Source: Methanothermococcus sp. SCGC AD-155-M21
GTDB lineage: Archaea; AGJL01; Methanococci; Methanococcales; Methanococcaceae
Direction: 5' to 3'
Length of the DNA stretch: 40,917 bases
Assembly: GCA_019561565.1 (NCBI GenBank)
Contig: JAHEPY010000003.1
Coordinates: forward strand, 1-40,917
In this document: piece after piece, positions 7,297-37,996 of the stretch
Layout: each line of letters starts with the position of its first letter
Position numbering within the stretch: position 1 is the stretch's first letter
Made by a program: the position numbers and the translations under genes
Notes under the pieces: model-generated
The model's input: only the letters and a program-made list of their open reading frames with translations
Told to the model about the DNA's origin: nothing
Databases searched by the model: none

Positions 7297-10200
7297 TCAC
7301 TTATCATAAATATGATATGCTAATTCCATCAACCTTTGTGCTATTTCATTTATTATTTTACCAGGCAGGATTTTTTTATTTTCTAATTTAAGTAGAAGGA
7401 TTTCTAAAATATATGCTTTTAGGTTTTTTTGCTGCGTATAGTTATTCCAGAATTCTCTCTGAATAACATCTACTATATCTTTAGTTAGATTAACTAAAAT
7501 ATCAATCTCTTCGCTGCTAAGTGAGTCAGTGGATTTATTAGGATATAATTCCCTTTTTAAGAGGCCGAAAAACGGCATTTCTTTTTTGGGATCAAAACCA
7601 AATGTTTCTTCTGCCTCTCTTCCTTTTTTCATTACCTCCCTAATATTTTCAAGTTCCTCATAGAGTATATCCCAGTTCTCTTTATATTCCTCAAGGATCT
7701 TATTTAATCTGTCAGAAAATCTCTCATAAAATTCAGGGTCTTCTTCATGGTGCTCCTCAATATGTTCTAAGATAGCATATTTAAGTTCTTCAACCCTTGC
7801 CTTCATTGATTTTGTCTTTTTCAGTTTTCCAATAAATTCATCATTAAAAAGGGGAGTTGGTGGTATTTTTGGGTTTATACCCTTTGATATGAGATAATCT
7901 TCAACAATCTCCCTTATTTTTTTACTTGCATCCTTTATACTAAGTTTATCATCTCTGTATCTGTTCCTTGCAGATTCTTTTATGAAATTGAGAATTTTTA
8001 AGTCCTTAACAAATTTTAGAGCCTCTGGATCTGGCAATACTGCATCCATTGCTCTGTTAAACTTTCTTATTAGATTTATAAATTCGTTTCTAATCTCTTC
8101 ATCAACTAAAAGATCAATACATACATCTATATCCGTTCTCCAATTTTTAATTCCATATTTATTAAAAAATTTGTTAATAATGCCGTGAATGAATTTTAAA
8201 TCATCTATACTCTTCGCCTTATTTTTTACAACTCCTGTAATTTCCTCTATATCTTCATCTGCATAAATTGAAAGAGCCTCCTTCAAATGCTTTAAGACTC
8301 CAACATAATCCACAACAAAACCGCAACTCTTGTTTTTATAGGCCCTATTAACTCTTGCGATAGCTTGCAGGAGATTATGTTCTTTAATTACACTGTCTAA
8401 ATACATAACCTGCTCTATTGGAGCATCAAAACCCGTAAGGAGCATACTTTGGACAACTAAGATTCCTACATCTCCAGAAATAGAGTTTTCCCTCTTATCA
8501 AATGGAAGTTTGAAACTTTTTATTATTCTCTCATGCTCGGCTGTATCCGTGTAGGGTTGATATTCTGGGGGATCATTGGGGGCTCCAGATATAACTACGC
8601 CTACTTTTAGCCTCTTAAGTTTTTCTATATCTATTTTGTTTTCCTTATCTCTTTTTAATGCTTCTATTTTCTGTTTAAGTGCCTCCTCAAGTGCCTTTTT
8701 ATACCTTATTGCGGCAAGCCTTGAGACTGTTACAACCTGAGCCTTGAAACCATTAGGGAATATATGGGTTATATAATGCTCTATCATATCCTTGGCTTTA
8801 TCCATTATAACATTTTCATCCTCAAGATATGCCCTCCAGGTGTATCTCCCCATTATCCTTGTCTTTTCATTAGCATCCAGCATGGAAAAAACATCTTCAA
8901 ACCTCGCGTTTGCAGACTCTTCATCGGATAACTCTGCGCTGTGAATTCGACCTTCATAAACTATTTCAACAGTTACCCCATCTTCAACTGATTGCCTTAT
9001 GCTATATTTATCAACATACTCCCCAAAGGTCATCTCTGTTTTTTCAATAGGGGTTCCTGTAAAGGCTATCTTTACAGCATTTGGTAGGGCATTTTTAAGA
9101 TTGGCACCTAAAAGTTTATACTGTGTTCTATGTGCCTCATCAATCATAATAAGTATATTTGGCGAGTCGTTGAGTTTTAGAGGTGGTTTTTTAAGATCTC
9201 TTTCCTGAAATTTATGGATCATACCCATTACTAAGTCTGGAGTATCTGTTCTTAGAAGGTCTTGGAGTTCTTTTATACTATTTGCAGAATGTACAGTGAA
9301 GCCCACACTCCTTGATGTTTCGTACAACTGCTTCTCTAAATCCTTTCTATCGATTATAAAAACAATCTTAAATTTAGCAAGCTCTGGATCATGATACATA
9401 GCCCTAACTGTGAACATCATTGTTAAAGATTTTCCTGATCCCTGTGTGTGCCATACAATTCCGCCTCTTTCTTCGGGTGTTTTTCCCTCTTTTAATTCTT
9501 TTATAATTTTCTTGACGGCCCTAAATTGTTGATACCTTGCCACTACCTTAATAAAGCCACTCTTTGGGTCTTCCTTAAAAATAGTGAATGTATGGAGCAA
9601 ATCCAGAAGATTGCTCTTTGAGAGCATCCCTTGAATCAGAACCTGTTGGCTTGTTATATTCCCCTTAGTGTTTATATTTGAGAGTGTGTAAGGATAGGGA
9701 TCCTTCCATTCAACAAAGTGCTCATATTCTGAGGTTATTGTACCATACTTTGCAATTTGGTTAGATGTGGCAACAGTGAAAAGATTAAACCAGAATAATT
9801 TTTCATTTCCTTCCTTTGCCCCTCTTCTGTTGGAGTATCTCATAATTTGGGTTATTGCCTCACTTATTGGGTCAGATGTTGCAGGAGATTTACATTCAAC
9901 CACTACCAGAGGCAGGCCATTTACAAAAAGAACAATATCAGGAATTATATGCTTTTCTGTGCCTGGAATATTTACCTTAAACTGGGAGATTGCAATAAAT
10001 GAGTTATTCTCAGGGTTCTTAAAATCTATGAATCTAACAGTTGGGCTATTCTCCCCTGTTATTCTATTTTCAGATACAGATGTATTTTCTAAAAGCATGT
10101 TATGGATTTCCATGTTTGCCTCTAAAAGGGAGTTGGCTGACGGTGTGGTTATTCTCCTAACTACTTCATTTATCTGGTCCTCTTCCATCCATGGATTTAT

Positions 10201-27527: not shown

Positions 27528-30500
27528 TTAATTATTAATTATGCCTATTTTTTTAAAAATTTTTTTAATATAATTCCTATCCTCCTGGAAAAGAATATTA
27601 TGTTTTTCAAAATCTTCTTTTGTATAATTACCTTCGCCAAATATACCTTTTATATCATCGTAAGATGATGTAGATAGAATAAATGCATCCAATTGTATAT
27701 TAAGTGTTTCTCCTTTTTTATTTAATTCTTTATTTATTCTCTTTTCTATTTCCTTAATATAGAAGGTACATAATTGGATTTTTTCATCATTAAAGTTCCC
27801 AAGGTTTCTTATACCCTTTGGATCTATAAAAATTATATGCTGTTTATATTCCCTTTTTATCCACATTACAAAGTCCGGATAGAATCCTGAGGTAATAAAA
27901 AACCCTATACCTTTTCTTGAGAGATTTCTAAGTAAAAATATATCATCATTTTTAAAGGTACTATTATTTTCTAAAAAGTTTTTAAGATCCTCTACAAATT
28001 TTGTTTCTCCTTCATTCAACTTCACAGGAATTGATTTTATTTCGTCTTTATTTTTCTTCCATACTATCAAAGGAGTGCATAAATGATTGTCAAGATGAAC
28101 AACAAAGGAATCCCATTCTTTCCATTGTTGGGGCACTTTATCATTATCTGGATCATATTCATTGAGTTGCTTCATAATTTCTTCAATATCCTCTTCTAAG
28201 CTTTTTGGTATTTTAATTATTATTTCTCCATCCTTGGGATACATAGAAGGATGTTTTTCTATTGTTAGGGGTTCAACTTCCAAATAATCCATAGTTTTTC
28301 TTTTCTCTTCCCTTCTATAGGATTTAAGGATATAATCCTTTATAACCATTAAAATGATCTCATTAAATTTTCTTATTCCTTCAAATGAAAGTATTTTTAA
28401 AAATGATTCTTCGTTGTTATGTTCTATATCTATTCCCTCTGATTTATTTAGGAATATTTTATATTTTTTTGATTTTATTATATTTTTTATTGTATCAATA
28501 TCTATAATTAAATTATACATTCCTTCTGTAATTTTATAATTCATAACCTCTGAGTAAATAAAATCCCAATCAATGAAGTTTAAATCTTTCTCTTGGATAT
28601 ATAATGGTTTATCAATTGTAATCTCTGCATTTCCAACCTTTAATCCCTCTGCTGTTGTAATCTTAGGCCTTAGATCAATTTTTATATTTCTTAATATTTT
28701 TTCATCTACTTCAAGTTTTAGAGGGTATTCAAGAAAATTAAAGTCATCCTTTGTTTTTATTGTGTAAATCTTTTTTTCCCATTTGTTGGTTTTATTGAAT
28801 TTTATTGGAATTTCTATCTCTTCATAATCTACCTCTTCCCTCTCTATTGTGGCTAAAAATGCATTTATATAGTCTGCATTTAAACCGAATATAAATAGGG
28901 TTTGTAATACCTTTAATTCATAATCTGGATTTTCTTCTCTCCTTAGGGAGTAATCTTTACCTTTTAGTCTTACCCCCCTTCCAAAGAGTTGGATAATTTG
29001 AGGTCCCTCTCCCTTTCCCATATTTATTAATCCCATATTTGAAACACGCCAGGAGTTCCAACCCTCAATGAATTTTTTAGATCCAATTAAAATATTTATA
29101 TGAGAGTTATTTTTATTAATATCAAAGAATAAGGATTGGGTAAAATGATCTTCTTTAATCTCTATTTTGGATTCTGAAATTAGTTTTTTTAAAGTTTTAA
29201 CATCCCCAACATTAATAACTCCAAAGTATTTTTCTCCTGTTGTTTTTAGCCCTATCTCTCCCTCTGAGTTTTTTATCTCATAAAGTTCCAATTTTCCATT
29301 TCCATTAAATATTTTTTGATATATATCCTCTACAAGGGCATCTAAGTTTAAATTTCTTATAAATTTAAATTTATTTTTAAAAATATCATTTCCTTCATTG
29401 TTAATAAGTCCAGATTCTCCACTTAATATTTTATCTACATTTTCTTTAAATTGTTCCTTATTCTTTGTTATTGCATCAATAAATTTAATTACTTTCACTA
29501 CATCAGAGTTAACTCCCTTTCCTATTACCTTACTACCAACAAAAATCCATAGGGGTTTTTCAATATTGTATTCCTTTAATTCTTTTTTATGTTTTTCAAA
29601 AATTGCCAATTGTTCATAGAATGACAATAATCCTGCTGTGAATAAAAGGTTTTGCTTTTCTTGGGAATAATATTCTTTATTGTCCTTTTTCTCTGATTTT
29701 ATATTATAAACATAAAAATCTTTACCATATCCATCTTTATAAAAGTACTTATAGGAATAATCAAAAATTATTGCCTTAGAATATTCCTCAAGTAAATCTT
29801 TATTTTTCCCAATAACCTGCCCAAATGTTGCAGAGTATTCATATAAAAATCCTTCTTTTGCTATCTCTTCCCTTAATTTTTTCCATCTTTGTTCTTCTGA
29901 TTTTTGTCCCTTATGGCCCTCATCTATGAAAACTAAATTTTTGCCCTCAAAATAGGATATATCTACACTTACTCCTTCTCCCTTTTTCTCTTTTGTTAGT
30001 TTATGAATATCTATGATTAATATTTCTCTATCTTTTGTTTTAAGATTATTAGAGTTCCCATCATATAATTTAAATGGAATACCACTAAGTTTTAATTCCT
30101 CTTGATGTTGCTTTGATAATCCCTCATTAGGAGTTATAAGGATTATGTTGTCCCAATTATTTTTTGAGTATTTTAAAATCTGCCAATAATTTATATGCAT
30201 TATTAAGGTTTTCCCACTTCCTGTTGCCATCCAAAAGGCTAATTTTTTTAGGTCTTCCTCTGTAAAGGGGCTTATTTTTGTTCTGTTTTTGCTGTTAAAC
30301 TCTTGTAAAAATGCATTTAATTCATTTAAAAACCTTTGCCTATCATTGTAATATTTATCGAGAAAAATTTCTGTAAATAAAACTGCTAAATACTGGAAGT
30401 ATTTAAGTTTAAAGTCTATCTGGCTTCTGTTTTTTTCTAATTTTTTTACATACTCCTTTATTGCATAATCATATCTTAAAAGTAAATTCTCCCACTCTGG

Positions 30501-30662
30501 TTTTAATCCTATTAAAGTATCAATAAAATAACTTCTCCCTAAGTTATCATAGCCTTCTTGGGTGTCCTTTAATTTTTCCCCTAATTCCTTAAAATCATTA
30601 AATCCAAAGAAACTTAGGAAATATTTGTTTAAAACCATATGTTTTTCAAGTTTTATTGCCAT
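27528..30662 (-). CDS. res: Type III-like restriction subunit (Res), helicase-nuclease
   Basis: This is the ATP-dependent DNA helicase/endonuclease of a type III-like restriction system. The 1044-residue protein has Walker A FWMATGSGKTLIMH (about residues 143-156), a Walker B of DEGH type (LVFIDEGHKGQ, about 243-252, rather than the usual DEAH), motif III EYSATFGQ, and motif VI QIIQLFGRGVRLKGK. The C-terminal nuclease has the PD...D-x-K pattern in GFYPDFVMWIKRE and IIFIDPKGIRN (about 926-952). Its start ATG at 30662 follows the small upstream gene by 10 bases with AGGGGATG as ribosome binding site, so the two are coupled. All motifs look intact. Confidence 0.88.
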   Translation of the reverse strand: MAIKLEKHMVLNKYFLSFFGFNDFKELGEKLKDTQEGYDNLGRSYFIDTLIGLKPEWENLLLRYDYAIKEYVKKLEKNRSQIDFKLKYFQYLAVLFTEIFLDKYYNDRQRFLNELNAFLQEFNSKNRTKISPFTEEDLKKLAFWMATGSGKTLIMHINYWQILKYSKNNWDNIILITPNEGLSKQHQEELKLSGIPFKLYDGNSNNLKTKDREILIIDIHKLTKEKKGEGVSVDISYFEGKNLVFIDEGHKGQKSEEQRWKKLREEIAKEGFLYEYSATFGQVIGKNKDLLEEYSKAIIFDYSYKYFYKDGYGKDFYVYNIKSEKKDNKEYYSQEKQNLLFTAGLLSFYEQLAIFEKHKKELKEYNIEKPLWIFVGSKVIGKGVNSDVVKVIKFIDAITKNKEQFKENVDKILSGESGLINNEGNDIFKNKFKFIRNLNLDALVEDIYQKIFNGNGKLELYEIKNSEGEIGLKTTGEKYFGVINVGDVKTLKKLISESKIEIKEDHFTQSLFFDINKNNSHINILIGSKKFIEGWNSWRVSNMGLINMGKGEGPQIIQLFGRGVRLKGKDYSLRREENPDYELKVLQTLFIFGLNADYINAFLATIEREEVDYEEIEIPIKFNKTNKWEKKIYTIKTKDDFNFLEYPLKLEVDEKILRNIKIDLRPKITTAEGLKVGNAEITIDKPLYIQEKDLNFIDWDFIYSEVMNYKITEGMYNLIIDIDTIKNIIKSKKYKIFLNKSEGIDIEHNNEESFLKILSFEGIRKFNEIILMVIKDYILKSYRREEKRKTMDYLEVEPLTIEKHPSMYPKDGEIIIKIPKSLEEDIEEIMKQLNEYDPDNDKVPQQWKEWDSFVVHLDNHLCTPLIVWKKNKDEIKSIPVKLNEGETKFVEDLKNFLENNSTFKNDDIFLLRNLSRKGIGFFITSGFYPDFVMWIKREYKQHIIFIDPKGIRNLGNFNDEKIQLCTFYIKEIEKRINKELNKKGETLNIQLDAFILSTSSYDDIKGIFGEGNYTKEDFEKHNILFQEDRNYIKKIFKKIGIINN

Positions 30663-30672
30663 CTACATCCCC

Positions 30673-31116
30673 TTAAAGATTTTCAAGTAATTGGATTAAC
30701 TCATTATTTGTGTATTTTCTAAAAAATACTTTAAACTTACTTTCATCATACTTATTAAATTCATCATAGTTTTTTACTTCCCAAACCCAAAAATCACATT
30801 CTAAGGTTTCTGGATTCTTTAATCCATAGAGTATGATAAAAAATTTTATTCCTATTTTCTGACTTAGAAGAAAAATCGCTTTGGAGTTTGCACCACATAA
30901 ATATTTTTTCTGTTTTACATGGGCCTGTTTTACTTCTAAAAAAGCCTTTGGGATAAATTCTCCATTTTTTTCTATTCTATATTCATAGAAATCAATGTCA
31001 GTGGTATAAGATTTATTACTAAGATATTTTCTATGCCAACTATTAAAAGTTAAATCCCTTTCTCCAGTTTTATCTGTTCTTTTACCAAATTTATCTCGTG
31101 TTAAATCATCATTCAT
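30673..31116 (-). CDS. Small PD-(D/E)XK-like protein between mod and res
   Basis: I do not recognise a named family. The 147-residue protein begins MNDDLTRDKFGKRTDKTGER. The stretch SYTTDIDFYEYRIEKNGEF followed by FLEVKQAHVKQ resembles the D...(E)xK core of a PD-(D/E)XK nuclease (TDIDFYEY giving the Asp, LEVK giving E-x-K). A hydrophobic strand IKFFIILYGL and a basic C-terminus follow. Its ATG at 31116 directly follows the stop of the third mod relic (no intergenic base), and it precedes res by 10 bases, so it belongs to the mod-res operon. It may be an accessory nuclease or a DNA-end-binding subunit. The fold call is inference from a few residues. Confidence 0.65.
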   Translation of the reverse strand: MNDDLTRDKFGKRTDKTGERDLTFNSWHRKYLSNKSYTTDIDFYEYRIEKNGEFIPKAFLEVKQAHVKQKKYLCGANSKAIFLLSQKIGIKFFIILYGLKNPETLECDFWVWEVKNYDEFNKYDESKFKVFFRKYTNNELIQLLENL

Positions 31117-31250
31117 TTAACTCTCCCCCTTAAACATTAATGATTTAAATAAAGGTTCTATTGCTTTAAATCCCTTAACTGTAGCATCCCTATTGATATA
31201 AATCTCATCAGGATTAAAATCTTTTATTGTATTTTTAATTATTTTTCATC
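31117..31250 (-). pseudogene. Relic of a third mod gene: C-terminal about 43 codons
   Basis: The translated piece KIIKNTIKDFNPDEIYIN, then RDATVKGFKAIEPLF and SLMFKGES before the TAA (31117-31119), is plainly the last part of the Mod proteins encoded at 31689 and 34745 (compare FNPDEVYINRDATVKGF in modA and FNPDEIYINGDAIVKGF in modB). No start or catalytic part is present; the upstream frame is closed by a TGA at about 31249. The relic overlaps the end of the ggct gene at about 31239-31250, where the homology begins. This implies that a former mod gene was replaced or interrupted here, leaving its tail, and the small nuclease-like gene follows it exactly as it would follow a complete mod. Confidence 0.85.
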
Positions 31251-31687
31251 TTTTCTTACCCTAAGATAAGTATCGATGTATTCCGAAGGCAGACTTAGTT
31301 GTTTTGCACTTTCTACAACAATTTCTTCATATTCCACAGAAGGACTTCCCTCTTTAAGAGGCTCTCTTAAATAAACTAACACCTTATAGGGCTTATCTTG
31401 TTTATCATATGCATCTAAATATTTTTAGAATATGTAGTGGGATAGCCCTCACATCGGTTTAATTCTTCTTCATCTCTCTCAGATATTTTAAAAATCGCCC
31501 CCCAAACAATTCCTTCTTTATCTTTGAGTATATTGCCAACTGCTCCTTCACGTGTTATTGAATAACCATCATAGACAAATTTATAATTTTTAATATAACC
31601 AACACAAACAAACTCTGAATCAGGACAACGTTCTTCCATCTGATCTAAATTCATATTGGATCCATAAGCAAAGTAATATTTTTCCAT
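31239..31687 (-). pseudogene. Gamma-glutamylcyclotransferase-like protein, frame broken by one base
   Basis: This is a GGCT/AIG2-like fold protein. The N-terminal YYFAYGSNMNLDQMEERCP is the family signature, followed by the catalytic Glu region ISERDEEELNRCEGYPTTYSK. After KNI the frame stops, but the same chain resumes as YLDAYDKQDKPYKVLVYLRE and runs to VRKDEK at 31239. The break is in the A5 run at 31422-31426; one extra A restores an uninterrupted protein of about 148 residues. It sits between modB (1-base gap) and the third mod tail, an unusual place for such a gene. It may be a cargo gene brought in by recombination. The function inside a restriction locus is unknown. Confidence 0.8.
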
Positions 31688-33246
31688 TTTACATCACCTC
31701 AAACATTAACTTTTTAAACAAAGGTTCTATTGCTTTAAATCCTTTCACTATTGCATCTCCATTGATATAAATCTCATCGGGATTAAAGTTTTCTATTTCT
31801 TTTTTAATTTCCTCTTTATCTTTTTTAAAGTCCATGTTTTCCATACTTCTCCAAACTATTGCTACTCTTTTGCCTTTTTTTTCTCCAAAAACAAATAAAT
31901 ATGTTCTATTATTATCCTTTAATATTTTATATTTCTTAATATTTAAACCAAGAAGATAATTAAATGTCTCCACTAAATCCACATTTACTATTTTTTGTTG
32001 ATAATTTTCCAATATTTTAAGTTTATAGTTAAATGGATCCTTTAAGTCATCAATTTTAAGAAAAGTTTTACTTCCCTTTGTTTCCCATTCAAGCATGTAT
32101 TTAACAAAGTAATCTGAGAGTTCTAAAAGATCATTTTGTGCTTTTTCAAACTCAATATTTTCTAATGCATCTTCGTATTGTTCTAAGGTGTGGTATTTGA
32201 AAAATACGCCAATTCCATCAGTATCTTGTGGTTTTCCTTCCTTCCAGTTAAAAGAATGTGCCACTTTCTTAATTCTTGGAATGATAACAGTATCAAAATA
32301 TTCTGCCATTTCTATTAGAATAAACTTTCTTTTGCCTCCATCTTCTTTATTTAATTTCATAACTGCATGTGCGGTTGTACCTGAGCCTGCGAAGAAGTCT
32401 AACACTAAATTGTTGAGTTGAGTATTCATCCTTACCAAGTAGTGAATTAAACTACTTGGTTTAGGATATGAATCAAAAAAAATTCCTAAATTAGATATTT
32501 CGTTACTCCCTTCCTCATTTGTTCCCACACCTGCTTTTTTATCTAAAAAAATATTGTCAATATACTTGTCTGGTATGATCCAATCCTCCTTATCTTTTAC
32601 TCTCTTGTACCTTATAGAAAATTTTTTACTTTTTATGAAAAAAATTGTACCTAACATGATTTCTTTATCTAAGGTTTCTTGTGTCCATTTGGATTCGCAT
32701 TTTATTCTAAAAGAATTTTTATTTTTCCCATTAACAACCTCAACGTCATCTAATAACTCTACTCTTTCTCTTTTGCCTTTTTTATACTTACCATCTGGTA
32801 TATTAAAACTTACTGCATTTGGAGGAAACGTAAGAATTCTAAGGGAATTTCCCTTATTTAACAAAGGAGCATCATTACCTTCTGCTATTCTCCCCCTAAA
32901 TCTGTCTTTTAATTGTGCTTTAGCAAATGTGACAATATACTCTACATTTTTTCTAGAAATATTGGATAGAGAGGGAGGGGTAGAAGTATTATTCCAAATA
33001 AAAGTTTCTAAGAAACATTTTTCGCCAAAAATATTTATATTAATCATTTTTAATCTTTCCAACTCATTATCATCTATACTCACAAAAATAACTCCATCCT
33101 CTCTCATTAATTCCCTTGCTAAATTTAACCTATTCTCCATCATTGTAAGCCAGGATGAATGCTGATAGCTGTCTTTATAAATGAAATCATCACTTCCTGT
33201 ATTGTAAGGAGGGTCTATATAGATTGTTTTAATTCTTTCGCTATAC

Positions 33247-33310
33247 TTATTTAATAATAAATTTAAACCTTGGAAGTTCTCACTCTTTATTAAAATCCCA
33301 TCTAAAATAT
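33247..33310. repeat. 64-bp perfect direct repeat shared by modB and modA (other copy 36246-36309)
   Basis: These 64 bases match modA 36246-36309 without a mismatch. They are the longest clear block in two longer nearly identical regions that cover the N-terminal and C-terminal parts of the two genes. They lie just before motif IV, upstream of the region that differs between the genes. Such flanking identity would favour gene conversion or exchange of target-recognition parts. Confidence 0.85.
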
Positions 33311-33420
33311 TCTCTAAATCATTCTTTTCACTTAAGGCAGCCAATAACTTCCATTTAAATTCCTCATTAAAATATTTTGTATCAATTGGTAGTTTTTTAT
33401 ATTCTTTACCCTGCAATATG

Positions 33421-33428
33421 TTTTTTTT
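33421..33428 (-). repeat. A8 homopolymer (T8 on plus strand) splitting modB
   Basis: The homopolymer lies exactly where the two halves of modB change frame. The paralogue modA has the same codons interrupted by C bases (about 36418-36427), so it lacks a slippery run. An in-frame protein needs seven bases here. Such tracts in mod genes are the known switch of phase-variable methylation systems in bacteria. Confidence 0.8.
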
Positions 33429-34744
33429 CAATTAAATCATTCTTGTCTTTAACATCAATCCCAAATAACTCCTTCCATTCTTTTAATTGCTTTTTATTAT
33501 TTAATACTTTATCTAAAATACCCTCTAAAAACTCCTCTCCTGCATATTCCTTAATCTTATCCAAAGTAATTACATAATGAGTATTAATAACAAACTTTTT
33601 CTTCTCCCATAGTTTCTTCTGGAAGTTTTCAATCTGATCTAAAAACTCAATAATTTTTAAAGATATATCTCTAAATGCTATAACTCCAATAAGATAAATC
33701 CTTAATTTATCAAAGTATTTATTCTGCTCTAAAACCTGTAAATCCTCCAATTGTAAAAACTCATTTTTAATATAAAAATCCAATTCCCTTTCTAAAAATC
33801 CCTTTAAATTTTTATGGACAAAGTAATCAGTTGTATTTCTTCTTGTGTAGTTGTAAAGGTGTTTTTCCATTAAAGATTTTTCTCCTTCTTTTTTAAAAAG
33901 AGGTCTTATTGTTTCATTATTTAGTATTTTTTCTTCCAATATTTTTATTGTTTCTTCATTTATCTTATCCTGGGATATTGTATTACCATGCTTGTATTTC
34001 TCTTTTTCTTCCTCTTTTAAAGTTCTATATTCAAAGTAAATGTTTAATTCTTTTTTTTCTTTATCAAAATCAAATACTCTATCATTTAAAATAAAAAACT
34101 TCTTTTCCTGGGATTTAATATTTCCCTTTTCTTCCTCTGCTTCTATGACTTTAAAATTAACTGTTAATCCTTTAACTCTGAAGGTATATTTCCTAAGATA
34201 CTCCGTTGTTTTAATATAATATTGATCCTTATTTATCCAGTATAGATAAATCTCCTCTCCATTATATGGAATAATATATTTTTCATTTTTTCCATATCTT
34301 CTCTTACTTATAAAATCTCCATTATCGTAATATCTTGAGAAGAAGGTTATTAGGTGGTTGTAGATCTCTTTTTCTAAATTTTCTGAAATCTCGATCTGTT
34401 CTAATTGCTTTTTCTTTTCATAATATTCTTTTCCAAGGGGCGTATCTCTAAATCCTTCTTTTAAATCTCCATTTTTAAAAGCATCTTCTCTAAAGTTTTC
34501 ACTTATACTTTGTTTTATTTTTTCAAGTTCTTCTCTTATTTTATTTCTTTTTTCTTCATTTAAAAGATTTAATTGTTTTTTTATATCATCTATTAAATCA
34601 TTCTCAATAAACTCCTCAATCTCTTTTCTTTTATAATTCATTATTTTATAAATACCAAAGTCTAAATCCCCATTTTCAAATTGAAATAGTTCTTTGAGTT
34701 TGTTTTTTAATTCCTCTTTTAAATTATTGTTATTAATACTCATC

Positions 34745-37636
34745 TTACCCTTCCCTCCTGAACATTAATGATTTAAACAAAGGTTCTATTGATTTAAATC
34801 CCTTAACTGTAGCATCCCTATTGATATATACTTCATCAGGATTAAAATCTTTTACAATATTTTCAATTATTTTCTTATCATTCTCAAAGCCAATACCCCC
34901 CATACTTCTCCAAATTATTGCTATTTTTTTACCCACTTCTTCCCCAAATATAAATAAATATGTTCTATTGTTACATTCTAAAAGTTTATAACCTTTAATA
35001 TTCAATCCAAGGAGATAATTAAATGTTTCCACTAAATCCACATTTACTATTTTTTGTTGATAATTTTCCAATACTTTAAGTTTGTAGTTAAATGGATCCT
35101 TTAAGTCATCAATTTTAAGAAAAGTTTTACTTCCCTTTGTTTCCCATTCAAGCATATATTTAACAAAGTAATCCGAGAGTTCTAAAAGATCCTTTCGTGT
35201 TTTTTCAAACTCAATGTTTTCTAATGCATCCTCATATTGTTCTAAGGTTTGGTATTTAAAGAATCCTCCTGCCATCTTAGGGTTGTATTTTTCTTTTACC
35301 TCCTTTTCTTTACTTATTCCTGATTTATCATAGAATAATACTTTTTTCATTCTTGGCAAAATTACAGTATAAAAATGCTCTCCCATCTCAACTCCCATCC
35401 ATTTTCTCTTTAATTTATGGGCTACTGCTATTGTTGTACCTGAACCAAGAAAGAAGTCAAGGATTAAATCTCCTTCCTTGGATGTGGATTGAATAACACG
35501 CTTTAGAAGGATTTCGGAGTTTTCTGTTTGAAACTTCCAGGTTGTAGAGTATCCATAAATATCGCTCCAATTAGAGTCTAAAACTTCTTTATCCTTTTCT
35601 TCAACCCAGTATTTTGGCTGCACCTTATCATCCATACCACAAATTGGACAGCCTTTCCATGGCCCTTTATTTTTATCATGTATATATCTACAGTGTTTGC
35701 ATTGCAAAATTATTTTTCCTTCCTCTATCATCTGATCTATTTTTTCTTGGGAATATTTCCAGTGCTTTCCTACTGGAGGATATAACTCTTTGCCAAAGAA
35801 AATCTTAGGGCCCCCTTGCCCGGAAGAATCACCCATGTGTCTCCAAAACCCTCCTCTTTTCTCATTTTTCATCTTAAATGGATTTAAATAAAAAAAGTAT
35901 TCAGAATTTTTTGCATAAACGTATATTGTATCTAATCCTTCTGGAAGTTTCTTTACTTCTCTTTCCATAACATTTTTCTTAAATCTTCTTATACCTATTT
36001 CATTCCTAAAATTATCCTTTCCAAAAATCTCATTTAATAAAAACCTTACATAATGATTTCCATTATAATCACATCTAACAAATATACTTCCCTTTTCATC
36101 CAATAATTCCCTTCCCAACCTAATCCTATTTTCAAGCATTGTTATCCAAGTGGCATCCTTATAGCCAACTTTATAAAGATAATCTGCTTCATTATCTTTG
36201 TTAAAGGGAGGGTCAATATAAACTGTTTGCACCTTTTCATAATATTTATTTAATAATAAATTTAAACCTTGGAAGTTCTCACTCTTTATTAAAATCCCAT
36301 CTAAAATATCCTCTAAATCATTCCTTTCACTTAAAGCAACTAATAGATTCCATTTAAACTCTTCATTAAAATACTTTGTATCAATTGGTAGTTTTTTATA
36401 TTCTTTACCTTGTAATGTGTTGTTTTCAATTAAATCATCCTTATCTTTAACTTCAATATTGAATAAATCCTTCCATTCCTCTAATTGCTTTTTATTATTT
36501 AATACTTTATCTAAAATATCCTCTAAAAACTCCTCTCCTGCATATTCCTTAATCTTATCCATAGTAATTACATAATGGGTATTAATAACAAACTTTTTCT
36601 TCTCCCATAATTTCTTCTGAAAGTTTTCAATCTGATCTAAAAACTCAATAATTTTTAAAGATATATTTCTAAATGCCTTAACTCCAATAAGATAAACCTT
36701 TAATTTATCAAAGTATTTATTTTGTTCTAAAATCTGTAAATCCTCCAACTGTAAAAACTCATTTTTAATATAGAAATCCAATTCCCTTTCTAAGAATCCC
36801 TTTAAATTTTTATGGATAAAGTAATCCCTTGTATTTCTTCTTGTGTAGTTGTAAAGGTGTTTTTCTAGTAAAGATTTTTCTCCTTCTTTTTCAAAGATAA
36901 TTCCTGTTAAATTATTCTGGGGTATCTTTTTTTCTAATATTTTTATTATCTTTTCATTTATTTTATTCTGTTTAATATTTAACCCTTTTTTATCCCCCCA
37001 ACCTTTCTCCTTTGCCTCCTCTTTAGAGATTACTCTATATTCAAAGTAAATGTTTAATTCTTTTTTATCTTTATCAAAATCAAATATCCTCTCATTTAAA
37101 ATAAAAAACTTCTTTTCCTGGGATTTAATATTTCCCTTTTCTTCCTCTGCTTCTAAGACTTTAAAATTAACTGTTAATCCTTTAACTCTGAAGGTATATT
37201 TTCTAAAGTACTCTGTAGTTTTTATATAGTATTGATTCTTATTTACCCAGTAGAGATAAACCTCCTCTCCATTGTATGGAATAACATATTTTTCATTTTT
37301 TCCATATCTTCTCTTACTTATAAAATCTCCATTGTCGTAATATCTTGAGAAGAAGGTTATTAAGTGGTTGTAGATCTCTTTTTCTAAATCTTCTGAGAGT
37401 TTAATTTCTTCCAGTTGTTCCTTATTTTCAATTATACTTTTTTCCTCTTCACTTAAAATATTTAATTGTTTTTTAATCTCTTCAATTAGTTCTTTATCAA
37501 TAAATCTTTCAATCTCTTTTCTTTTATAATTCATTATTCTGTAAATACCAAAGTCTAAATCTTCCCTTTCAAATTGAAATAGTTCTTTGAGTTTGTTTTT
37601 TAATTCCTCTTTTAATTTATTGTTATTACTACTCAT
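34745..37636 (-). CDS. Type III-like Mod DNA methyltransferase A with zinc-ribbon target region
   Basis: This is the intact modification subunit of the type III-like system, a beta-class amino-methyltransferase. It has about 963 residues, longer than classical Mod (600-700), because of an N-terminal region of about 400 residues that starts LKEELKNKLKELFQFEREDL and has no motif I can name. Motif IV is TVYIDPPFNKDNEADYL (about residue 478) and SAM motif I follows later as LILDFFLGSGTTIA (about 728-741), the beta order. Between them lies the recognition region with a probable zinc ribbon, CKHC (649, 652) and CPIC (666, 669), numbered from the upstream GTG at 37645. The ATG at 37636 is chosen because modB starts at the equivalent residue. 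Confidence 0.9.
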   Translation of the reverse strand: MSSNNNKLKEELKNKLKELFQFEREDLDFGIYRIMNYKRKEIERFIDKELIEEIKKQLNILSEEEKSIIENKEQLEEIKLSEDLEKEIYNHLITFFSRYYDNGDFISKRRYGKNEKYVIPYNGEEVYLYWVNKNQYYIKTTEYFRKYTFRVKGLTVNFKVLEAEEEKGNIKSQEKKFFILNERIFDFDKDKKELNIYFEYRVISKEEAKEKGWGDKKGLNIKQNKINEKIIKILEKKIPQNNLTGIIFEKEGEKSLLEKHLYNYTRRNTRDYFIHKNLKGFLERELDFYIKNEFLQLEDLQILEQNKYFDKLKVYLIGVKAFRNISLKIIEFLDQIENFQKKLWEKKKFVINTHYVITMDKIKEYAGEEFLEDILDKVLNNKKQLEEWKDLFNIEVKDKDDLIENNTLQGKEYKKLPIDTKYFNEEFKWNLLVALSERNDLEDILDGILIKSENFQGLNLLLNKYYEKVQTVYIDPPFNKDNEADYLYKVGYKDATWITMLENRIRLGRELLDEKGSIFVRCDYNGNHYVRFLLNEIFGKDNFRNEIGIRRFKKNVMEREVKKLPEGLDTIYVYAKNSEYFFYLNPFKMKNEKRGGFWRHMGDSSGQGGPKIFFGKELYPPVGKHWKYSQEKIDQMIEEGKIILQCKHCRYIHDKNKGPWKGCPICGMDDKVQPKYWVEEKDKEVLDSNWSDIYGYSTTWKFQTENSEILLKRVIQSTSKEGDLILDFFLGSGTTIAVAHKLKRKWMGVEMGEHFYTVILPRMKKVLFYDKSGISKEKEVKEKYNPKMAGGFFKYQTLEQYEDALENIEFEKTRKDLLELSDYFVKYMLEWETKGSKTFLKIDDLKDPFNYKLKVLENYQQKIVNVDLVETFNYLLGLNIKGYKLLECNNRTYLFIFGEEVGKKIAIIWRSMGGIGFENDKKIIENIVKDFNPDEVYINRDATVKGFKSIEPLFKSLMFRREG
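35537..35679 (-). repeat. modA segment repeated inverted at the window end
   Basis: These 143 bases encode the second half of the modA zinc ribbon and the following residues (from HDKNKGPWKGCPICG to YGYSTTW). Their reverse complement is found, base for base, at 40775-40917. Confidence 0.9.
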
Positions 37637-37996
37637 TTTTAACACATCCCATGTTATATTTATGGCCTTAAAAAATTATTTATAATAAATAAAGAATAAT
37701 AATAAAAAATAAAGGATAATTAAAATTAAAATAAATTATTATAAAAATTTTATATAAATATAAAAAATAGTTAGAATTAAGGTAGAATAAATCTTAATAT
37801 TTTAAAATACCTAAACTCCCCTAAGGATGGCATTATAAACTTCATATTAAACTAAGATAGATGGACTTAAAATATCTTCTTTATTTATATTTTATTATTT
37901 TTTTATGGACTTAATTTAATATATATGCATTTGACTATTGTTATTGCATATCCTATCTAAAACCATATTTTTTTTAATCCCTTATTCCTTTCTTAC
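37637..37996. other. About 350-bp A+T-rich spacer upstream of the mod-res operon
   Basis: No gene is seen. The region must contain the promoter for the whole mod-res operon (minus strand), and GGGATG near 37648-37653 can serve as ribosome binding site for modA. A short GC-richer patch at about 37815-37835 (ACTCCCCTAAGGATGG) has no assigned role. Confidence 0.4.

What the first reader, a model, noticed from the sequence alone, without database searches (positions are those of the whole stretch)
30673..31116. Small PD-(D/E)XK-like protein coupled to Res: possible extra nuclease subunit
The TDIDFYEY...FLEVKQ pattern suggests a compact nuclease core, while Res already has its own C-terminal PD...DxK site. 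The gene is packed between mod and res with 0- and 10-base spacings. A second small nuclease would be unusual for type III systems.
Basis: inference. Interest (0 to 1): 0.5.

Follow-up and report, generated by a model that had tools for sequence, protein, structure and literature searches.

The report
Swappable nuclease gene in restriction operons
A small predicted DNA-cutting protein sits inside a restriction (anti-virus) operon, and comparison with relatives suggests it is an exchangeable cutting part that changes together with the part that reads the DNA target.

Summary
The 147-aa gene is real and lies in a type III restriction-modification operon. Its D-x-D...E-x-K residues are invariant in 6 of 6 aligned relatives, one only 24% identical. 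An AlphaFold model, poor over residues 1-39, looks most like the PD-(D/E)XK resolvases RecU and Hjc.

The context is the new part. In related mod-res loci the same slot holds several dissimilar small proteins ("X") with similar motifs. Loci whose Res lacks the C-terminal nuclease all have an X (7 of 7), against 2 of 11 with a complete Res; among loci found blind to X, 4 of 4 against 1 of 9. X type follows the Mod target recognition domain (TRD), not the Res subfamily. In a genome of the window's genus the same locus keeps a 92%-identical Res but carries another TRD and another X.

Best reading: a TRD-matched nuclease subunit acting in trans with the Mod-Res motor. Main rival: a stand-alone type II-like enzyme of matched specificity.

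The parts
30673..31116 (-). X-A: small PD-(D/E)XK-like protein, 147 aa
30991..30999 (-). codons of D40-I41-D42 (first acidic motif residues)
   Evidence: invariant D40 and D42; coordinates computed
30928..30936 (-). codons of E61-V62-K63 (ExK motif)
   Evidence: invariant E61 and K63; coordinates computed
27528..30662 (-). res (Res-A subfamily), 1044 aa, helicase motifs plus C-terminal nuclease
   Evidence: PADLOC REase_III E 5.9e-148; motifs
27816..27884 (-). Res C-terminal nuclease motif FYPDF...FIDPK
   Evidence: coordinates computed
31117..31253 (-). 3' fragment of a mod gene directly before the small gene
   Evidence: 90% over 122 bases to the mod1 3' end; 86% over 130 bases to the mod 3' end of L072
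31415..31687 (-). GGACT-like (gamma-glutamylcyclotransferase) fragment between the mod pieces
   Evidence: Pfam GGACT E 1.9e-6, residues 5-88 matched to 1-82 of 120
31689..34743 (-). mod2: two overlapping frames (33406-34743, 31689-33431), TRD unlike mod1's
34745..37645 (-). mod1, 966 aa, intact; carries TRD-A
   Evidence: PADLOC MTase_III E 2e-179
35513..36007 (-). TRD-A of mod1, with two CxxC pairs
   Evidence: 67-77% identical to the TRDs of L002, L003, L005

Best explanation
The small protein is the nuclease part of a three-gene form of type III restriction-modification. Mod reads and methylates the target, Res supplies the ATP-driven motor, and the small PD-(D/E)XK protein (X) cuts DNA in trans. 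X is matched to the TRD of Mod, so TRD and X are exchanged together while motor and Mod scaffold stay. Inferred order: X is gained beside a complete Res (as in the window), the Res nuclease becomes dispensable, and it is then lost. Shown here: gene, motif conservation, predicted fold, association with loss of the Res nuclease, association with TRD type, co-replacement at an orthologous locus. Inferred: catalysis, docking on Mod/TRD, cutting after Mod-Res sliding.
For: Catalytic-type residues invariant in 6 of 6 aligned X-A relatives and a RecU/Hjc-like model. Loci with a Res lacking its nuclease: 7 of 7 have X; complete Res-B: 2 of 11 (Fisher p 0.0023). Two of the seven (L002, L005) were found by searching with X itself; among loci found with the Res profile and unknown before the prediction was noted, 4 of 4 against 1 of 9, p 0.007. 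All 7 short Res keep Walker A, DExH and motif VI, and tblastn found no displaced nuclease remnant after them. The short/long label changes at least 3 times on well-supported branches. X-A goes with TRD-A in 4 of 4 loci that have a mod, across four Res backgrounds including the window's Res-A, which is 23-28% identical to the others. X-B goes with TRD-B in 3 of 3 and was found in only 2 of 136 Aquificota genomes, both in this slot. L072: mod ends and Res stay homologous (82-87% and 94% DNA) while TRD and X are unrelated. Two thermophile type III systems need mod plus res for methylation (PMC8259958, Results and Discussion read), which would explain keeping a nuclease-less Res.
Against: No activity or interaction data. 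Four loci have X plus a complete Res (window, L072, L020, L055), so X does not simply replace the Res nuclease. TRD-B occurs without X in L050 and L024, and L021 lacks X although its TRD is 69% identical to that of L020, which has one. One X-A (L004) has no mod or res on its 9.3-kb contig. L020's X has E instead of K (IEVE). The X-B model is unusable (pLDDT 52), and the X-A/X-B profile match is weak (probability 6.5). L046 Res ends 86 bases before its contig end. Counts are small and phylogenetically clustered. In the window mod1 is not adjacent to X.
Confidence: 0.5

Rival explanations
1. X is a stand-alone type II-like restriction enzyme that recognises the same sequence as the TRD of its Mod; Res loses its nuclease because X makes it redundant.
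For: X types are dissimilar in sequence and 146-261 aa long, and each tracks a TRD type, as expected of sequence-specific enzymes. Mod needing Res for methylation (PMC8259958) would also explain the kept helicase.
Against: Type III Mods methylate one strand only (PMC8259958, PMC4490356 passages), so after replication one daughter site is bare and a single-site enzyme should cut the host; this rests on these Mods doing the same, which was not tested. X-A lacks room for an obvious extra recognition domain (147 aa).
Confidence: 0.22
2. X is a repair nuclease matched to the methylated site, as Vsr is for Dcm.
For: Small PD-(D/E)XK-type protein linked to a methyltransferase specificity; the loci are from thermophile-rich groups where deamination is fast (recalled).
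Against: Does not explain why Res loses its nuclease in X-bearing loci (7 of 7 against 2 of 11) nor the variety of X proteins.
Confidence: 0.08
3. Decay: short Res proteins are nuclease-dead remnants, the loci work only as methyltransferases, and X is a passenger or a non-catalytic helper of Mod.
For: L003 Res is frameshifted and interrupted by a transposon; mod2 and a third mod copy in the window are broken.
Against: In 7 of 7 short Res the helicase frame and motifs are intact, with no nuclease remnant in the loci; the catalytic-type residues of X-A are invariant.
Confidence: 0.15

Closest known systems
Type III restriction-modification (EcoP15I, EcoPI)
   Same: Beta-class Mod with TRD between motif IV and motif I; Res with SF2 helicase motifs; PADLOC MTase_III and REase_III
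   Different: A third gene between mod and res encodes a PD-(D/E)XK-like protein, and in 7 relatives Res has no nuclease domain
m4C type III systems DthLIII and FnoB1III of thermophiles (PMC8259958)
   Different: Their Res has the C-terminal nuclease; no gene between mod and res is described in the parts read (abstract, introduction, part of methods, Results, Discussion). The extra gene reported for two other systems is a helicase 5' of mod
RecU and Hjc Holliday junction resolvases
   Same: Best structural rows for X-A: RecU Z 8.3 (rmsd 3.3, 114 aligned), Hjc Z about 7
   Different: 8-14% identity; operon context is restriction, not recombination
Type II restriction endonucleases
   Same: Small, diverse, tied to a methyltransferase specificity
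   Different: Always with a type III Res in the loci counted; no family match in Pfam or NCBIfam
Thermus plasmid pTA78 operon (SNF2 helicase, DrmMI/IIG-like methylase, 231-aa protein)
   Same: The 231-aa protein is a relative of the X of L072, with the YDF...EVKSD pattern, beside a methylase and a helicase
   Different: Helicase resembles DpdE/DrmD and methylase DrmMI, not type III Res and Mod

Membership tests
PD-(D/E)XK nuclease superfamily (X-A) | Conserved acidic residue plus (D/E)xK on adjacent strands | tested here: met
   D40, D42, E61, K63 invariant in 6 of 6; on strands 41-50 and 53-64 or just before
PD-(D/E)XK nuclease superfamily (X-A) | alpha-beta-beta-beta-alpha-beta core | tested here: inconclusive
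   Order of elements fits, RecU/Hjc top rows, but Foldseek E above 0.001 and residues 1-39 poorly predicted
PD-(D/E)XK nuclease superfamily (X-A) | Metal-dependent DNA cleavage | not testable with these tools
   needs biochemistry
Type III restriction-modification (window locus) | Beta-class Mod with TRD between motif IV and motif I | tested here: met
   DPPF at 478, TRD, then FFLGSGT at 731 in mod1; MTase_III
Type III restriction-modification (window locus) | Res with helicase core and C-terminal nuclease | tested here: met
   row winA
Type III restriction-modification (short-Res relatives) | Res with helicase core and C-terminal nuclease | tested here: not met
   7 of 7 lack the nuclease motif and have no remnant; they work at most like type III with a separate nuclease
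Type III restriction-modification | Cleavage after communication between two inversely oriented sites | not testable with these tools
   needs biochemistry
RecU/Hjc resolvases | Sequence-level relationship | tested here: inconclusive
   phmmer and hmmsearch of PDB sequences list neither; fold resemblance only
Type II restriction endonuclease | Cuts its site alone, without the helicase | not testable with these tools
   needs biochemistry
Vsr repair endonuclease | Vsr family sequence match | tested here: not met
   no Vsr family among Pfam or NCBIfam rows for X-A at E up to 1

The most novel reading that the evidence does not exclude
A modular form of type III restriction in which the cutting domain has left the motor protein and become a cassette of interchangeable, mutually dissimilar nucleases, each dedicated to one DNA-recognition domain of Mod; specificity and nuclease are swapped as a pair around a constant motor, and the motor's own nuclease has been lost repeatedly.
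Probability: 0.42. Interest if true: 0.8.

Novelty: new variant of a known kind. Interest (0 to 1): 0.66.

Why it matters
Type III enzymes are described as Mod plus a combined helicase-nuclease Res. A trans-acting nuclease matched to the recognition domain would separate motor from cutter, make it testable which surface recruits the nuclease, and explain how such systems could change specificity without losing restriction. It would also point annotators to a class of small hypothetical genes between mod and res.

Tried and rejected
Phage match of X-A (E 0.03, Salmonella phage Munch and four others): the protein lacks the D-x-D...ExK pattern; dropped. Plasmid searches with two X-A proteins, the mod1 TRD and X-B gave no match; viral contigs with the X-A alignment gave none. 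Weak EF-Tu and Cas6 rows in PDB sequence searches are chance-level.

A weak own-family match (G021, E 0.005, one internal stop) was dropped. X-B structure model (pLDDT 52) was not used for fold search.

Motif control: 12 of 12 X proteins match a loose pattern and 11 of 12 a strict one, against 4 and 3 of 164 other ORFs of 100-320 aa. The pattern was written after seeing the X proteins, two of the four control hits are X-A-like proteins (L063, L065), and the X of L072 did not match a similar pattern, although YDF...TVEVKSD is shared with Thermus. So it is description, not proof.

Rows left out of the Res-B count: 4 of 22 places: L003 (damaged Res) and L040, L051, L052 (cut by contig ends). Res-A loci are not in that count: window and L072 have X; L022, L023, L024 (Res cut), L073 (mod split by an insertion) and L074 do not; where readable these Res are long.

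The tree gives label changes, not losses: three could include a regain in L020, which sits beside L044.

In print: searches showed no paper describing a nuclease gene between mod and res; only listings and starts of abstracts were seen, except PMC8259958 and passages of PMC4490356. The library holds open-licence papers only.

Full report
THE GENE. The ORF at 30673-31116 (minus strand) encodes 147 aa. It has no credible match in Pfam, PADLOC, NCBIfam, PHROGs or PDB sequences. One scan of genome contigs found four relatives at 56-67% identity: L002 (Anaerolineae), L003 (Methanolliviera), L004 (DHVE2 archaeon), L005 (Aquificaceae). It is rare: 1 of 36 genomes of the own phylum, the window's own, and 1 of 400 in the phylum of L002, L002's own. 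A sixth, divergent member (L019, 24% identical to the window protein) lies in another Aquificota genome. D40, D42, E45, E61 and K63 are invariant in 6 of 6.

FOLD. AlphaFold on 5 sequences gave mean pLDDT 74.6, with residues 1-39 mostly under 50. The element order fits a PD-(D/E)XK core. Foldseek found nothing at E 0.001 or below. VIA-align put RecU first (Z 8.3) and Hjc next (Z about 7); 12 of the top 13 rows are RecU/Hjc-type resolvases, the other a tRNA splicing endonuclease; BsaXI, SPARDA, D212, BpuSI and HsdR follow. The tool warns that a best Z of 7-8 is common for models without a clear match, so the fold is likely, not settled.

THE WINDOW OPERON. Order on the minus strand: mod1 (intact), mod2 (two frames), GGACT-like fragment, mod 3' fragment, small gene, res. 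Mod1 residues 451-800 are 56-88% identical per 50-residue block to the Mods of L002, L003 and L005, while the N-terminal blocks before residue 451 are 12-47% and the C-terminal blocks up to residue 900 are 23-34%. Mod1 and mod2 agree in most N-terminal blocks (85-92% in 6 of 8 full blocks) but fall to 20-48% in the TRD part. So mod1 carries a TRD related to those of the other X-A loci in a different scaffold. The window Res is 23-28% identical to the Res of L002, L003 and L005.

RELATED LOCI. A TRD profile found 7 of 136 Aquificota genomes; L019 had a divergent small gene, four others had mod directly followed by res, and L020 had a different 243-aa gene in the slot. A Res-B profile then found 14 places in 13 of 136 Aquificota genomes, 5 of 392 in the phylum of L003, and 3 of 400 in that of L002. 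Open frames were bimodal. Before fetching neighbours I noted the prediction that short Res should have a small nuclease gene and long Res not.

RESULT OF THAT TEST. Short Res (L002, L005, L019, L044, L045, L046, L047): 7 of 7 have a gene X between mod and res. Long Res with readable mod side (L020, L021, L033, L048, L049, L050, L053, L054, L055, L059, L060): 2 of 11 (L020, L055). Fisher p 0.0023. L002 and L005 were found through X, so they are biased; with them dropped, 5 of 5 against 2 of 11 (p 0.005); with only loci new to me after, 4 of 4 against 1 of 9 (p 0.007); without the doubtful L046, 3 of 3 against 1 of 9 (p 0.018). Four of 22 places were not counted: L003 (damaged), L040, L051, L052 (cut). 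Fisher ignores relatedness: the L005/L020/L044/L045/L047 rows form one clade. On the Res helicase tree the short/long label needs 4 changes, at least 3 on well-supported branches, which may include a regain in L020. All 7 short Res keep helicase motifs and leave no nuclease remnant; L003 by contrast shows the nuclease part, frameshifted and interrupted.

X FOLLOWS THE TRD. TRD-A: window mod1, L002, L003, L005 (64-77% identical); each locus has X-A. TRD-B: L044, L045, L050, L055, L024 (about 70-82%); X-B is in L044, L045 and L055 only. L020 and L021 share a TRD (69%), and only L020 has an X. So a TRD can do without X, but each X family seen more than once goes with one TRD type. X-B was found in 2 of 136 Aquificota genomes, both in this slot; strong X-A hits in 2 of 136, both in this slot, plus three weak ones, of which the three loci read (L063-L065) show a different methylase beside it. 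X-A, X-B and the other X proteins are not alignable with confidence; the X-A/X-B profile match is weak though it pairs the D-x-D and E-x-K parts.

ORTHOLOGOUS LOCUS. In G007, same genus as the window, L072 has mod, a 219-aa X, and a Res 91.7% identical to the window's, followed by the same arginyl-tRNA synthetase side. DNA similarity is 94% over Res and stops within about 10 bases of the small gene on both sides (homologous blocks end at 31125 and resume at 30682). It is also lost in mod1 between 36161 and 35264, the TRD, while the mod 3' parts stay 82-87%. Thus two separate segments, TRD and X, differ between relatives that share the rest. The X of L072 has YDF...TVEVKSD...TGN, also in Thermus plasmid proteins, one of them beside a helicase and a methylase.

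MECHANISM. Known: EcoP15I Mod2Res1 reads DNA with one TRD, slides after ATP hydrolysis and cuts on meeting another complex; its endonuclease domain hangs on a spacer and is disordered (PMC4490356, passages). Two thermophile systems need Res for methylation (PMC8259958). Inference: X takes over or adds cutting, recruited by Mod or its TRD, with the motor kept for sliding and perhaps for methylation. One-strand methylation argues against a free single-site enzyme, if these Mods also modify one strand.

LIMITS. No activity data; small clustered sample; one poor X model; post hoc motif pattern; four loci with both nucleases; one X-A without mod or res on its contig (L004).

Noticed in passing
window 33406-33431: mod2 is open only as two overlapping frames that meet at an A-rich run; phase variation, decay or an assembly error are all possible.
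   Followed up: partly
window 31415-31687: A GGACT-like (gamma-glutamylcyclotransferase) fragment sits between mod pieces in the operon.
   Followed up: no
L003:4066-5723 and 8549-9838: An XRE/ImmA-IrrE-like gene and a second gene lie between X and Res, and a transposase-like gene lies where the Res nuclease is interrupted.
   Followed up: partly
L063:1444-2639, L064:1492-2554, L065:1285-2557: Distant X-A-like proteins (DIDF...DYK) sit beside a different DNA methylase; two of them match PHROG 16357, and one finds Streptomyces phage proteins.
   Followed up: partly
L047:6478-7263: This X may have the motif domain first and a GSRPS-like stretch second, the reverse of X-B; similarity is weak (E 0.06).
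   Followed up: no
L075:1157-8546: Thermus aquaticus pTA78: SNF2 helicase (DpdE/DrmD-like), DrmMI/IIG-like methylase and a relative of the L072 X in a row.
   Followed up: partly
L022:4352-10968: Tandem mod genes with a Res N-terminal fragment between them, resembling the duplicated state of the window.
   Followed up: no
L002:8442-8732: A 291-base gap between X and res contains repeated non-coding units.
   Followed up: no
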